Source: Chloroflexota bacterium (GTDB taxonomy: Bacteria; Chloroflexota; UBA6077). From it: DNA of 7,470 bases. The DNA is taken from contig JAMCTB010000153.1 in NCBI GenBank assembly GCA_023380955.1, positions 1 through 7,470 of the forward strand, given 5' to 3'. Below, one piece after another: positions 2,117 to 7,357 of the stretch. The notes under the pieces are model-generated. The model worked only from the letters and a program-made list of their open reading frames with translations. It was not told the DNA's origin and did no database searches. The position numbers and the translations under genes were made by a program. The number at the start of each line of letters is the position of its first letter. The stretch's first letter is position 1.

Positions 2117-2761
2117 GTGGAGTTAGAAGAAGCTCTCAAGACCAGGAGATCCATACGGAAGTACCGGGATGTCGACGTTCCCACCGACCTGATCCTGAAG
2201 GCTATCAGCTTGGCCTCATGGGCGCCCAACGGCGGCAATTTCCAGCCCTGGAAGTTCTTCGTGGTGAAGAACCCTCGGATGATCGGGCGGATTGCGGACG
2301 CCGTCCAGGCCAAGGTGGATGCGATGGCCGGCTGGCCCGAGGCGGCGGAGTTCGGCCAGACCTTCGAACGGTACCGGGCCAACGCCGCCTTCTTTCGCAC
2401 CGCGCCGGCCGTCATCGCCGTGGCCATGGGGGGCTACCAGAGCGCGGCCGACAAGGTGCTGCGCCGGCGGGACGAGACGGATCCGGCCGCCAGCGAGATG
2501 ATCCGGAATCGGGCCGAGGTCAGCTCGCGGATCCAGACCATCGCCGGAGCCACCGGCTACCTGCTGCTGGCGCTTCACAGCCTCGGGCTTGGTGCCTGCT
2601 GGATGGCGGGGCCGATGCTGGCGAGGAGGGAGATCGCCCGGATGCTGGAGGTCCCCGACGACGTCGAGCTGTTCGCCCTGGTGCCGGTGGGCTACCCCGC
2701 CGAGAGCCCCGCGCCCGGACCTCGCAAGCCGCTGGAAGAGGTGGCGCGGGTAATAGAGTAG
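2117..2761 (+). CDS. Nitroreductase-family FMN oxidoreductase
   Basis: A 214-residue cytoplasmic flavoprotein of the nitroreductase superfamily, which uses NAD(P)H and FMN to reduce nitro groups, quinones, flavins or related substrates. Family marks are the N-terminal FMN-phosphate motif (TRRSIRKYRD, residues 9-18), the ASWAPNGGNFQPW segment (33-45), which matches the usual AP-S-x-x-N-x-Q-P-W signature, and the C-terminal GATGYLLLALHSLGLGACW region that packs on the flavin. The length is normal. Translation starts at GTG 2117-2119, with a strong AGGAGGAG Shine-Dalgarno sequence at 2104-2111. The gene is divergent from the marR-efflux operon; pairs of MarR-type regulators and nitroreductases occur in quinone and electrophile stress responses, so shared control is plausible but not shown. 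The stop is TAG, with an in-frame TAA 12 codons later. The substrate cannot be predicted. Confidence 0.92.
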   Translation: MELEEALKTRRSIRKYRDVDVPTDLILKAISLASWAPNGGNFQPWKFFVVKNPRMIGRIADAVQAKVDAMAGWPEAAEFGQTFERYRANAAFFRTAPAVIAVAMGGYQSAADKVLRRRDETDPAASEMIRNRAEVSSRIQTIAGATGYLLLALHSLGLGACWMAGPMLARREIARMLEVPDDVELFALVPVGYPAESPAPGPRKPLEEVARVIE

Positions 2762-2946: not shown

Positions 2947-3417
2947 GTGCGGTTCGTGTTATCTGTCTGGGTACTAGTTCTGTCTGCCCTGTTGCTGTTC
3001 ACCTTCGTGGTGCTCACCCACCAGTTCTTCGACCCTACCCTCTCCTCCGCGGCTGTGGCCGGTTCCCTCATCGTTGCGACCTGGGTGGTGGGCCTGGTCA
3101 GCGCCGGCGCCATCCACATCCTCTATCGCCGGGCCGAGCGGGCCATCCAGCAGGCGGCCCGAGACGAGACCATCGTCCAGCTGGCCGGCGCCGTGGCCCA
3201 CGAGTTGAACCAGCCGCTCACGGTGGTGATCAGCACCGCCGAGCTGATTTGCGGTCGGGAGCGGAGCCCCGAGGAGCTGCAGGGCCTGGTGCAGAGGATG
3301 GCGGAGGCCTCCTTGCGGATGGCCGACATCGTGTCCAAGCTGCAGCATGCCACCAGCTATCGCGCCAAGAGCTACGTGGGGGAGGTTCGGATCGTCGATC
3401 TGGACAAGGCCAGCTGA
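2947..3417 (+). CDS. Small membrane protein with HisKA phosphoacceptor domain, no ATPase domain
   Basis: A 156-residue protein. Residues 1-24 and about 35-58 are hydrophobic and should span the membrane as a hairpin. Residues 60-135 form a histidine-kinase dimerisation/phosphoacceptor helical pair with the H-box AGAVAHELNQPLT; the candidate phospho-His is residue 85. Everything that normally follows is absent: no N, G1, F or G2 boxes of a HATPase domain are present and the protein stops at a TGA after VGEVRIVDLDKAS. From memory, short HisKA proteins with a similar Y-x-G-x-x-x-I-x-D-x-D tail exist, so the ending looks natural rather than truncated. It cannot autophosphorylate by itself; it may accept phosphate from another kinase or act as a scaffold. 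The GTG at 2947 has GGAGGGAG 8 nt upstream; earlier in-frame starts are not favoured. The dehalogenase-like gene begins 11 nt after its stop, so the two are probably cotranscribed. Confidence 0.8.
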   Translation: MRFVLSVWVLVLSALLLFTFVVLTHQFFDPTLSSAAVAGSLIVATWVVGLVSAGAIHILYRRAERAIQQAARDETIVQLAGAVAHELNQPLTVVISTAELICGRERSPEELQGLVQRMAEASLRMADIVSKLQHATSYRAKSYVGEVRIVDLDKAS

Positions 3418-3428
3418 AGCACGGGGCA

Positions 3429-4442
3429 ATGGGTACGGGGATGCCGGTGGTCAACGATGTGCCGGGGAGCGCCGTGGAGTGGCGATCCCTCTTTGATGGT
3501 AGAAGGGTCGAGGAACCCACCTATCGCGGGGACGTGATCGGGCTGCTGGAGCGTTTCGACGAGCGGGATTGCCTGTTCGCCCGGATGGACCTGGAGTCGG
3601 GCTCTGAGCGGTATCGGGCCTACTACCAGGCCCACGAGGAGTTCCAGCCGGCCGACGACTTCCTCCGAGCCCTCCCTCCCCTGGGGAGTTCCGCCGCACC
3701 CCACGATCGAGCCGCCCTGGATAGTCTCTTCGGTTCGGCCTTCATCGCCGGGCTGCCGAAAGAGGTGGCATCCGTCGGTGGCCGACCCGAAGCGGCGCGG
3801 CTCCCGACGGACCCTCAGGTGGCCGCCCTCAAGGTGAAGGCTCTGGCCCGCTACCTGGGCGTCGACCTGGTGGGGATCGGCCCCCTGAATCCGGCCTTCC
3901 GCTACTCCCACGTGGGCCGGACCTTCTACGGCCAGCGCTGGGGTGAGGAGATCTCCCTGGAGCATCCCTACGCCATCTCGCTGGGGATCGCAATGGACTA
4001 CGACCAGCTGCGCCGCCACGCGCCGGGATTCCCCGTCCTCATGGAGAGCGCCCTGGCCTACGCCAGCGCAGCGGCCATCGCCGTGGAGCTGGCCAACTAC
4101 CTGCGAGGCATGGGCTACTCGGCTCGGGCCCACCACCTGAGATACTACCAGCTACTCAGTGTGCCGGTGGCCGTGGATGCCGGCCTGGGGGAACTGGGAC
4201 GCTCCGGCGTGCTGATCACCCGGGAGTTCGGCAGCAGCCTCCGGCTGGCCACGGTTACCACCGACCTGCCGATGGTCCTGGATCGCCCGGTGGACCTGGG
4301 GATTCAGCAGTTCTGCCGGGACTGCAAGCTGTGCGCAATGGCTTGCCCTGCCGGCGCGGTGCCCAAGGGGGATAAGATCGCCGTGCGGGGGGTCAGGCGG
4401 TGGAAGCTGTCGGCGGGGCGCTGCTACCACTACTGGCGCTAG
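3429..4442 (+). CDS. Reductive-dehalogenase-like 4Fe-4S protein, cut by an in-frame amber codon
   Basis: Residues 1-337 of a protein resembling reductive dehalogenases (RdhA), which use corrinoid and two [4Fe-4S] clusters to remove halogens from organic compounds. About residues 225-337 match the conserved core: SVPVAVDAGLGELGRSG (244-260), the ITREFG and VTTDLP segments, then RPVDLG followed by a ferredoxin-type motif with Cys 296, 299, 302 and 306 (CRDCKLCAMACP). There is no twin-arginine signal and no rdhB-like membrane anchor gene, so the product should be cytoplasmic and is unlikely to be a respiratory enzyme. The frame stops at TAG (4440-4442) after CYHYWR, just past the first Cys (332) of the second cluster motif; the frame continues in 4443-4634. 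As it stands the product would lack the second cluster. The start is uncertain: ATG 3429 or ATG 3441, both with weak G-rich ribosome sites, probably coupled to the gene upstream. Corrinoid binding and dehalogenation are not shown, and related uncharacterised Fe-S proteins exist. Confidence 0.8.
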   Translation: MGTGMPVVNDVPGSAVEWRSLFDGRRVEEPTYRGDVIGLLERFDERDCLFARMDLESGSERYRAYYQAHEEFQPADDFLRALPPLGSSAAPHDRAALDSLFGSAFIAGLPKEVASVGGRPEAARLPTDPQVAALKVKALARYLGVDLVGIGPLNPAFRYSHVGRTFYGQRWGEEISLEHPYAISLGIAMDYDQLRRHAPGFPVLMESALAYASAAAIAVELANYLRGMGYSARAHHLRYYQLLSVPVAVDAGLGELGRSGVLITREFGSSLRLATVTTDLPMVLDRPVDLGIQQFCRDCKLCAMACPAGAVPKGDKIAVRGVRRWKLSAGRCYHYWR

Positions 4443-4634
4443 GTGGGCAGCGACTGCGCCCTCTGCCTGGTGGCCTGTCCCTGGAGCCGCCCGGACAGGC
4501 TGACCCGGCCCCTGCGTCCGACCCACCCCGATCCGATCCTGGACCCCGCCACCCTGGCCATGGTAAGCCAGGTCCGTGCTTCGTTGCCGCCCTGGCTCAG
4601 GAAGTACCTGGGGGATGTCAATCCTTCTCGATGA
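4443..4634 (+). pseudogene. C-terminal continuation of the dehalogenase-like frame after the amber codon
   Basis: This stretch continues the frame of the preceding gene after its TAG and runs 63 codons to a TGA. It begins VGSDCALCLVACPWSRP, which supplies the missing three cysteines (343, 346, 350 if the TAG is counted as residue 338) of the second [4Fe-4S] cluster, followed by a short tail ending in PWLRKYLGDVNPSR. The whole frame would be 401 residues, a reasonable size for a dehalogenase-like protein without a signal peptide. The conserved motif and the absence of any further defect show that the break is recent, apparent (sequence error) or tolerated (readthrough). A GTG directly after the TAG could restart translation, but no ribosome site precedes it. 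The end overlaps the convergent metW gene by 17 bp. Confidence 0.7.
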
Positions 4635-5244
4635 CAAACAGTGCCATGCGGGCTCGCAGGTTGGGGAGCAGGTGCACCTGCCGGCCACCCGACAGGAAGA
4701 GGCTCTTCACCGCCGAGATCCCCTCGGCCTCGCACAGATCCTGGAAGTCCCGGATCGTGGTCAGGTGTATGTTGGGGGTGTTGTACCACTCGTAGGGCAG
4801 ATCGCTGGACTTGGGCATCCGGCCTCCCAGCGTCAGCTGGAGACGGTGTCGCCAATAGACGAAGTTGGGGAAGGAGACGATCCCCAGCCGCCCGACCCTC
4901 AGCATCTCCTGGAGCACCAGCCGGGGCTTGTGCACGGCCTGGAGGGTCTGGCTGAGGATCACGTAGTCGAAGGAGCCGTCGGGGTAGTCTTCCAGCCCCT
5001 CGTCCAGGTCGCCGTGGTGGACCGACAGCCCGCGAGAGATGCAGCGGTACACCCCCTCCTCGGCGATCTCCACACCCCTGGCGGTGGCCTGCCTCTCCCT
5101 GATCAGCATCTCCATCAGCTCGCCGTTGCCGCACCCCAGGTCCAGGACGGTGGAGCCCTCTTCCACCAGATGGGAGATGAGGTGAAGGTCTATTCTCTCC
5201 GTCAGCGCCGGTATCGCGATTTCATCGTCCAGCCTGGTGACCAT
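4618..5244 (-). CDS. metW: MetW, SAM-dependent methyltransferase-fold partner of MetX
   Basis: A 208-residue cytoplasmic protein with a class I methyltransferase fold, matching the MetW family that accompanies MetX in methionine synthesis. SAM-binding motif I is VLDLGCGNG (33-41), followed by an acidic residue in GVEI (58-60), GDLDEGL (78-84), FDYVILSQTLQ (92-102), and the family-typical SFPNFVYWRHR (124-134) and PYEWYNTPNIH (150-160). I favour ATG 5242-5244, just 2 nt past the metX stop, because GGGAAGG lies about 11 nt upstream. An upstream GTG (5254-5256) would add four residues and overlap metX by 10 nt, but the SD abuts it. It should be cotranscribed with metX and share its T-box control. 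In other bacteria metW is needed with metX for full methionine prototrophy; its exact biochemical role is less settled. Its 3' end overlaps the end of the convergent dehalogenase-like frame. Confidence 0.92.
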   Translation of the reverse strand: MVTRLDDEIAIPALTERIDLHLISHLVEEGSTVLDLGCGNGELMEMLIRERQATARGVEIAEEGVYRCISRGLSVHHGDLDEGLEDYPDGSFDYVILSQTLQAVHKPRLVLQEMLRVGRLGIVSFPNFVYWRHRLQLTLGGRMPKSSDLPYEWYNTPNIHLTTIRDFQDLCEAEGISAVKSLFLSGGRQVHLLPNLRARMALFVIEKD

Positions 5245-5246
5245 GG

Positions 5247-6479
5247 TTATCGCCACCTTCCCTTCGCCGTGTAGGCCAGGAAGCCCTTGATAAGGGGGGT
5301 CTGCGCCTCCTCCTCCAGCAGGAAAGCATCGTGGCCGTAGGAGGAGGGGATCTCACAGTAGCTCACGTCGATGCCGTTGACCTTCAGCGCCTTGACGATC
5401 TCCTTGGACTGGTAGGGGGGGTAGAGCCAGTCGGAGCTGAAGGAGATCACCAGGAAGCGAGCCTGCACGTCGCGGAAGGTGACGCCCAGCCCGCCGTGGC
5501 CGTTGGCCAGGTCGAAGTAGTCGATGGCCTTGGTGATGTACAGGTAGCTGTTGGCGTCGAAACGACGGATGAAGCTGTCGCCCTGGTGCCGCAGGTAGCT
5601 CTCCACCTCGAAGTCGGTGGAGAAGTCGAATCCGTACTTCTCACGGTTGCGGAGCCGCCGGCCGAACTTCTGGTGCATCGCCTCGTCGCTGAGGTAGGTG
5701 ATGTGGCCCAGCATGCGGGCCACGGCGAGGCCGGGCAGCGGGGTGTTCCTGCCGTAGTAGTCGCCCCCGTGCCAGTTCTGATCCGCCACGATGGCCTGGC
5801 GACCCACCTCGTCGAAGGCGATCCCCTGGGCCGACAGGCGAGCCGTGGTGGCGATGGGTATGCAGGCCCGAACGGCCTCCGGATAGGCCACGGTCCACTG
5901 GAGGGCCTGCATACCGCCCAGGGACCCTCCGGCCACTGCCAGCAGCCGCTCGATGCCCAGATGCTCCAGCAGCTTCTTCTGGGCGCGCACCATGTCGCCT
6001 ACGGTGATCACCGGGAAGCTCAGCCCGTACGGCCGGTCGGTGGCGGGGTTGATGGAGCTAGGACCGGTGGACCCTCGGCAGCCACCCAGGATGTTGGAGC
6101 AGATCACGAAGTAGCGGTCGGTGTCGAAGGCCTTCCCAGGGCCGATCATGTTGTCCCACCAGCCCACCTTCTTCCGGTCCGCGGCGTCGCCGGACTTCGC
6201 CCCGAAACCCGTGTCCGCCGCGCTGACGCCCCCATCCTCGGCGCCGATCCCCGCGGCGTGGGCATCGCCCGAGAGGGCGTGGCAGGCCAGGATAGCGTTG
6301 CTCCTATCGGAGTTTAGCTCTCCGTAGCTCTCGTAGGCCAGGGTGATTGGGCCGAGCTTCTCGCCGCTGTCCAAGACCATCTCGTCCGGTGGCTCGGCGA
6401 AGGTGAAGTACTGGGTTTTTACGGCTCCGACAGATCCCGGTTCCACGGCTGCGCGCCTGCTTTCTTCTTCGTTTACCAT
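5247..6479 (-). CDS. metX: Homoserine O-acetyltransferase MetX
   Basis: A 410-residue alpha/beta-hydrolase-fold enzyme of methionine synthesis that transfers an acyl group, normally acetyl from acetyl-CoA, to homoserine, preparing it for sulfhydrylation. Visible family marks are [10 protein letters not shown] (68-77), [16 protein letters not shown] (130-145), the nucleophile elbow [12 protein letters not shown] with Ser186, Asp350 in [10 protein letters not shown] and His383 in [10 protein letters not shown], which complete the catalytic triad. Residues 77-105 form a longer glycine-rich insertion before the usual GWWD motif. The start is ATG 6477-6479: the SD (GGAGGGG) lies 9 nt upstream at the end of the T-box leader. 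In-frame codons further upstream belong to the riboswitch and are not coding. MetX-fold enzymes may use succinyl-CoA in some lineages; the GGCxG(S/T)TGPSS segment resembles acetyl-type enzymes but is not proof. No sulfhydrylase gene is present in the window. Confidence 0.96.
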
Positions 6480-6822
6480 ACAGAAAGGCCCCTCCTCCCT
6501 ACCAGGGACGAGGGGCCCATCTCGTGTTACCACCCTGCTTCGCGACCGCCTCGCGGTGGCCGCCTCCGTGAGTACGGGGCCGGGCTTCGCCCGATCCGAT
6601 ACTCCAACCCTGATAACGGGGGCTGACTGTCTCCGTGGAGACACCGGCTCGGCCTACTGGGAACCCCGAGGGTTTCGTTCAGCCTGCGGCTCCGAGGTCA
6701 TTTTCACCGGCCCTCCGGCACCGCCTCTCAGCAACGCGGCTCTCTGGAGCGCTCGGCACCGGTTACTCGTCCTCTTCGCAGCCTTTGGCTATGCAATTGA
6801 TGGAACGCTGGTTCAACGGGTT
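6480..6822 (-). promoter_or_regulatory. T-box riboswitch sensing tRNA-Met, leader of metXW
   Basis: A full T-box leader precedes metX. Read on the minus strand, stem I carries the GAAGAGGACGAGTA motif (about 6777-6764), CAGAGAGCCG (about 6746-6737) and a TGAGAGGCGG segment. Its specifier loop reads GGTGAAAATGACC, giving an AUG methionine codon at 6701-6699. Further hairpins follow (GTCTC-CACG-GAGAC, 6642-6629; GGGC-GAA-GCCC, 6592-6582; ACCGC-GAG-GCGGT, 6557-6545). The T-box itself, AGGGTGGTAACACGAG, is at 6536-6521, with the 7-nt bulge UGGUAAC (canonical UGGNACC). UGGU fits a tRNA ending in ACCA, as expected for elongator tRNA-Met. The antiterminator pairs CAGGG with CCCTG and ACGAG with CTCGT. 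Uncharged tRNA-Met should stabilise it and turn metXW on. Specifier, bulge and downstream gene all point to methionine. Confidence 0.95.
6487..6517 (-). terminator. T-box terminator / Shine-Dalgarno sequestrator hairpin
   Basis: On the minus strand GGCCCCTC (6517-6510) and TCCCT (6508-6504) pair with AGGGA (6500-6496) and GAGGGGCC (6494-6487) across a GGT loop, with one G-G mismatch. The 5' arm includes CTCGTCCCT, which the antiterminator also needs, so the two folds exclude each other. The following run is only TTTCTGT, weak for Rho-independent termination, while the 3' arm contains the metX ribosome site. The hairpin may therefore act by hiding the ribosome site, by termination, or both. 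Confidence 0.88.
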
Positions 6823-7200: not shown

Positions 7201-7357
7201 AATCCGTGGATTCTCAGGGCTCGAATGGCTGTCTCGCATGCAGCCGCAGGGCAAACGCCCATTTTGCGCTTTCACCCAACGGGTGATATTGCCGCGACCC
7301 GCTTTCGCGTGGCGTGGAGCGGAAAAATGGCAACGCCGCTCAATGAATCCACGGATT
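7201..7357. repeat. 157-bp segment bounded by 13-bp inverted repeats
   Basis: AATCCGTGGATTC (7201-7213) is exactly inverted at 7345-7357. Each arm is itself a near-palindrome (AATCC-GT-GGATT). Between them lie smaller dyads: GCAAA/TTTGC (7251-7255, 7263-7267), TCACCC-AAC-GGGTGA (7272-7286) and CGCGA/TCGCG (7293-7297, 7305-7309). The arrangement resembles a small non-autonomous mobile or palindromic intergenic element, but no target-site duplication is visible at the edges and no transposase is present. The left arm begins 15 bp upstream of the glutaredoxin-like promoter. Confidence 0.45.

What the first reader, a model, noticed from the sequence alone, without database searches (positions are those of the whole stretch)
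4440..4442. In-frame amber codon inside the second Fe-S motif of a dehalogenase-like protein
The sequence shows CYHYWR, then TAG, then VGSDCALCLVACPWS in the same frame, with no other lesion from 3429 to 4634. The TAG falls between the first and the remaining three cysteines of the second cluster, so a stop there removes an essential cofactor site. Four explanations remain: a recent nonsense mutation, a base-call error (AAG, CAG, GAG or TGG would each need one change), translational readthrough, or pyrrolysine insertion. Against general recoding, the MFS and nitroreductase genes also end in TAG. Selenocysteine is excluded because the codon is not TGA.
Basis: partly seen in the sequence, partly recalled or inferred. 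Interest (0 to 1): 0.75.

Follow-up and report, generated by a model that had tools for sequence, protein, structure and literature searches.

The report
Nonsense-broken dehalogenase-like gene, probably recent
A bacterial gene for a B12-dependent, dehalogenase-like enzyme carries a stop codon where its closest relatives encode an ordinary glutamine, most likely a recent disabling mutation or possibly a sequencing error, with no sign of a special reading of the stop.

Summary
The in-frame TAG at 4440-4442 is present in the given sequence. It cuts a 401-codon reductive-dehalogenase-like gene after residue 337 and removes three of eight Fe-S cysteines. All 120 listed homologues (of 1399 hits) have an ordinary residue in that column; 23, including the two nearest (98% and 94% identical), have glutamine, and the column is variable. 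So the stop is derived, is seen only here, and is one base step from a glutamine codon. 'No other lesion' holds for stops and frameshifts. However, residue 239, Asp or Asn in 119 of 120, is Tyr only here and aligns with active-site Asn272 of PceA. This is weak evidence of decay, because intact relatives P0003 and P0004 also carry odd residues at conserved sites. Best reading: a young nonsense allele (pseudogene). Main rival: base or assembly error, which only reads can settle. Pyrrolysine or programmed readthrough has no support: no listed relative ends at this column, the column is unconstrained, and two window genes end in TAG. It is not excluded, because no host genome is held and Pyl systems are reported in some Chloroflexi.

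The parts
3429..4634 (+). Reductive-dehalogenase-like gene, 401 codons if read across the TAG (ATG at 3429; an alternative ATG at 3441)
   Evidence: Translation; 1399 homologues at E <= 0.001, best 98% over 100%; fold of relative P0002 matches PceA and NpRdhA
4440..4442 (+). In-frame TAG, residue 338
   Evidence: 120 of 120 listed homologues have a sense residue in this column, 23 of them Gln
4143..4145 (+). Tyr codon, residue 239, at the PceA Asn272-equivalent; window-only residue
   Evidence: N 85, D 34, S 1 in 120 homologues; profile alignment to PceA
4314..4346 (+). First Fe-S motif (Cys codons starting 4314, 4323, 4332, 4344), upstream of the TAG
   Evidence: invariant in alignment A1
4422..4478 (+). 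Second Fe-S motif (Cys codons starting 4422, 4455, 4464, 4476), interrupted by the TAG
   Evidence: invariant in alignment A1
2947..3417 (+). Upstream neighbour: 156-aa membrane protein with HisKA domain only, 11 bases before the ATG at 3429
   Evidence: shares contig length with the dehalogenase for 13 of 32 clusters
2117..2761 (+). Nitroreductase-family gene, ends in TAG
4618..5256 (-). metW, convergent, overlapping the dehalogenase-like gene by 17 bases
5247..6479 (-). metX (start by comparison with P0121)

Best explanation
The gene encodes a soluble reductive-dehalogenase-like protein expected to hold a corrinoid and two [4Fe-4S] clusters, in an uncultured bacterium that is probably Chloroflexota. 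A one-base nonsense change has turned an unremarkable glutamine codon into TAG. Translation stops after residue 337 of 401. The product lacks three of eight cluster cysteines and the C-terminal helices, so it cannot assemble its electron relay and is inactive: a young pseudogene or null allele. Shown: the TAG, its absence from 120 listed relatives, glutamine in the nearest ones, invariance of the lost cysteines in 56 relatives, and Tyr at the Asn272-equivalent. Inferred: loss of activity, recency, and that the base is true in the cell.
For: Sense residue in 120 of 120 listed homologues, Gln in P0001, P0002 and 21 others. The frame stays open and codon composition stays coding-like on both sides (GC3 0.85 before, 0.81 after), which fits a young event. 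Lost cysteines are invariant in 56 relatives. Window-only Tyr at the Asn272-equivalent. The neighbouring MetX and HisKA proteins carry no window-only residue against their nearest relative (4 of 410 and 5 of 156 differences, all with a residue seen in other relatives), so the sequence is not generally poor. Precedent: rdhA7 of D. hafniense DCB-2 is interrupted by a nonsense mutation (PMC3306737, passages).
Against: No reads were available, so an error cannot be ruled out. Decay beyond the stop is not established. Unique residues at conserved sites also occur in intact relatives P0003 (three) and P0004 (two). The window has the shortest branch in its clade. The dehalogenase/HisKA divergence ratio of 1.58 is inside the range of 13 contigs, 0.72-1.67. 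The high dehalogenase/MetX ratio (5.2 vs 1.4-2.0) is only marginally significant. Two odd changes in 401 codons against none in 566 of MetX plus HisKA is also what a few local errors could give.
Confidence: 0.72

Rival explanations
1. Base-call or assembly artefact: low coverage or merging of strains produced a TAG (and perhaps the Tyr at 239) that no living cell carries.
For: The closest relative has a sense codon there. The stop is private. No reads are available. No whole genome is held for the window, so it may be a metagenome record. Two odd changes sit within about 300 bases (4143, 4440).
Against: No further stop or frameshift in the frame. No window-only residue in MetX or HisKA against the nearest relative. 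The sister P0001 differs at 8 further residues, so its sense codon does not speak for the same genotype.
Confidence: 0.22
2. The TAG is decoded: pyrrolysine insertion, an amber suppressor tRNA or programmed readthrough gives full-length protein.
For: The frame beyond the TAG is intact. Pyl systems are reported in Chloroflexi, including a Dehalococcoides lineage (PMC5424206, passages). The position is variable, so many residues should be tolerated.
Against: None of 120 listed homologues ends at this column, so the TAG is not a conserved signal. Residues there are ordinary and variable, so nothing calls for a special one. Two window genes end in TAG. All bacterial reassignments of a stop codon listed in the introduction of PMC8629427 are of UGA (section read). 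No tRNA lies in the window; the host genome could not be searched.
Confidence: 0.04
3. Split enzyme: the 63-aa frame opening with GTG right after the TAG (4443-4634) is translated by reinitiation and completes the protein as a second chain.
For: A GTG codon follows the TAG directly and opens a 63-aa frame.
Against: The cut lies inside one helix between cluster ligands (helix 328-338 of the P0002 model, with the glutamine at 337 by alignment). No split relative is seen among the 120 listed, although the length filter of that search would hide short tail pieces.
Confidence: 0.01

Closest known systems
rdhA7 of Desulfitobacterium hafniense DCB-2 (PMC3306737, passages seen)
   Same: A reductive dehalogenase gene reported as apparently non-functional because of a nonsense mutation
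   Different: A respiratory rdhA with rdhB in a cultured Firmicute; here a soluble RdhA-like gene of an uncultured, probably Chloroflexota, lineage without rdhB in the window
PceA of Sulfurospirillum multivorans (4UQU and others) and NpRdhA (4RAS, 6ZXU)
   Different: About 27-30% identity in the structural alignment; no extra N-terminal half as in NpRdhA; Tyr in the window where PceA has Asn272
QueG, epoxyqueuosine reductase (5D08, 5D6S)
   Different: Much weaker match: TIGR00276 scores 49.4 bits against a cut-off of 200

Membership tests
Reductive dehalogenase (RdhA) | Score above the curated NCBIfam RDH cut-off (TIGR02486) | tested here: not met
   150 vs 160.35 bits, window frame read across the TAG
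Reductive dehalogenase (RdhA) | Pfam Dehalogenase domain PF13486 | tested here: not met
   Not reported at E <= 1 for the window frame or P0001; weak and below cut-off (15.8 vs 24.3 bits) in P0057, one of five proteins scanned
Reductive dehalogenase (RdhA) | RdhA fold | tested here: met
Reductive dehalogenase (RdhA) | Catalytic Tyr and Arg (PceA Tyr246, Arg305) | tested here: met
   Y210 of P0002 invariant and R271 at 90% or more in 56 relatives; pairing by alignment; both kept in the window frame
Reductive dehalogenase (RdhA) | Two complete 4Fe-4S motifs | tested here: not met
   Complete in relatives; in the window the second is cut by the TAG if it is read as a stop
Reductive dehalogenase (RdhA) | Corrinoid bound; dehalogenase activity | not testable with these tools
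   Needs protein
Pyrrolysine protein | pylS, pylT and pylBCD in the host | not tested
   No genome held for the window; no tRNA in the window; one distant genome without PylS is not informative
Pyrrolysine protein | In-frame TAG conserved among relatives | tested here: not met
   Sense residue in 120 of 120 listed homologues
Pseudogene | Disabling change absent from relatives | tested here: met
   TAG private among 120 listed, removing cysteines invariant in 56
Pseudogene | Further decay or relaxed constraint | tested here: inconclusive
   Tyr239, but intact relatives have similar oddities, the window branch is short and rate tests are marginal

The most novel reading that the evidence does not exclude
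The host decodes amber (by a Pyl system or a suppressor tRNA), and this RdhA-like corrinoid protein tolerates the inserted residue at a variable helix position, so the TAG is a newly gained, near-silent sense codon in a B12 Fe-S enzyme that is not a methylamine methyltransferase.
Probability: 0.03. Interest if true: 0.75.

Novelty: new member of a known kind. Interest (0 to 1): 0.15.

Why it matters
If the stop is real, it is a snapshot of the loss of an RdhA-like gene and shows that this enzyme is dispensable in at least one population. It also warns against counting such genes as dehalogenation potential, or such stops as recoding. If amber were decoded here, a new class of corrinoid protein would join the amber-decoded set, but no result supports that.

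Tried and rejected
Recoding of TAG: unsupported (variable column, private TAG, two window genes ending in TAG). Selenocysteine: does not apply to TAG (established knowledge). RNA elements: no tRNA and no Rfam match at gathering thresholds in the window. DNA of relatives for a codon-level test: genome contigs gave one distant locus (51%) and viral contigs none, so no dN/dS was computed. PylS in the one genome reached, G001 behind that locus: 0 of 1; this is uninformative for this host, and 13 of the 14 control genomes rang weakly (1 over the cut-off). Decay of the HisKA neighbour: rejected, since the short form is conserved. Literature: DET0162 with stop codon and premature stop codon with Dehalococcoides gave no paper. 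A search for reductive dehalogenase pseudogenes gave 14 listed papers, of which I looked at passages of PMC3306737, PMC4751268, PMC8318568 and PMC8629427. Pyrrolysine searches led to PMC5424206. 'Fast-evolving, hence relaxed' was tested and is weak. A search for papers on HisKA-only kinases gave none (terms too narrow to mean much).

Full report
Observation. The + frame from 3429 runs to a TGA at 4632-4634 with one interruption, TAG at 4440-4442, residue 338. Read across the TAG, it finds 1399 proteins at E <= 0.001, of which the best 120 were listed and used here. The phylum is therefore an inference. The stop lies between the first cysteine of the second Fe-S motif and the other three. These eight cysteines are invariant in the 56 relatives aligned, which I chose from the 120.

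What occupies the column. A residue is present in all 120 listed homologues: A47, Q23, E19, T12, K10, S3, R3, D1, V1, L1. The two nearest, P0001 (98%, 401 aa) and P0002 (94%, 400 aa), have glutamine. The column is variable and the TAG is a derived state seen only in the window. In the predicted structure of P0002 (pLDDT 91.7) the corresponding glutamine, 337 by alignment, lies in helix 328-338 between cluster cysteines 331 and 342.

A second change. Counting window residues found in at most one other sequence, at columns with at least 100 residues, leaves two: the stop and Tyr239. Residue 239 is N in 85, D in 34 and S in 1 of 120 homologues. In the profile alignment it pairs with Asn272 of PceA. 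Passages of PMC6737245 name Tyr246, Arg305 and Asn272 as highly conserved active-site residues. Passages of PMC11921367 say Asn272 is predicted to aid the catalytic pair. A passage of PMC5500849 puts Asn272 in the ring that restricts access to the cobalt. Equivalents of Tyr246 and Arg305 are kept in the window. Two facts limit the weight of this. The position is not universal: a table row in PMC11921367 shows Ser and Ala in two other enzymes (column heads not seen), and NpRdhA has His by alignment. By the same count, intact relatives P0003 and P0004 have three and two odd residues at columns of 95% or more conservation.

Is decay visible? Window against it: dehalogenase 20/395 including the stop, plus a five-codon gap; MetX 4/410; HisKA 5/156. 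The dehalogenase/MetX ratio of 5.2 exceeds the 1.43-1.99 of ten pairs among five contigs. The binomial tail is 0.007-0.05 for assumed ratios of 1.4-2.0, and 0.04-0.16 when the first 15 residues and the stop are left out. The dehalogenase/HisKA ratio of 1.58 is above the 0.76-1.17 of the window against 12 other contigs, but inside the 0.72-1.67 of all pairs among 13 contigs. A protein tree of 15 sequences gives the window the shortest branch of its clade: 0.0075, against 0.016 for P0001 and 0.027 for P0002. Decay beyond the stop is therefore not established; if the stop is real, it is young. In MetX and HisKA all differences from the nearest relative have a window residue also seen in other relatives, which speaks mildly against a generally poor sequence. 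MetW, the nitroreductase and the MFS gene were not compared in this way.

Decoding. No genome is held and no tRNA lies in the window. Stops in the window genes are TAG for MFS and nitroreductase, TGA for MarR, HisKA, MetW and glutaredoxin, and TAA for MetX. Passages of PMC5424206 report Pyl systems in Chloroflexi metagenomes and a Dehalococcoides lineage, so the phylum alone excludes nothing. Nothing in the gene asks for such a system: the position is unconstrained and the TAG is not shared.

Verdict. A nonsense allele of an RdhA-like gene (0.72); a base or assembly error (0.22); decoding of the TAG (0.04); a split enzyme (0.01). A nonsense-broken rdhA is a known kind of thing: passages of PMC3306737 report rdhA7 of D. 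hafniense DCB-2 as interrupted by a nonsense mutation.

Noticed in passing
window 2947-3417 (+): A 156-aa membrane protein with a HisKA (phospho-acceptor) domain and no ATPase domain. 62 relatives plus the window all keep the His, 39 of 63 are exactly 156 aa, and six scanned show no other Pfam domain above cut-off. It shares contig length with the dehalogenase-like gene for 13 of 32 clusters. The search only admitted proteins of about 109-346 aa, so longer kinases could not appear. It looks like a conserved catalytic-domain-less kinase paired with an RdhA-like protein.
   Followed up: partly
window 6501-6788 (-): T-box leader upstream of metX: RF00230, 73.7 bits (below the gathering score of 93), E 3e-16 in a 411-base search. 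The specifier position reads AUG (Met) by the alignment columns, my inference. The terminator-like end folds well (z -4.1).
   Followed up: partly
window 4618-4634: The 3' end of the dehalogenase-like gene overlaps the convergent metW by 17 bases, so its last codons are also metW sequence.
   Followed up: no
window 7201-7213 and 7345-7357: A perfect 13-base inverted repeat with 131 bases between the arms, near the window's end; possibly the ends of a small mobile or repeat element.
   Followed up: no
window 3429-4634 against P0001 and P0002: The sense-codon sister P0001 has its own unusual residues (Cys269, Glu379) and shares with the window a five-codon gap relative to P0002.
   Followed up: partly
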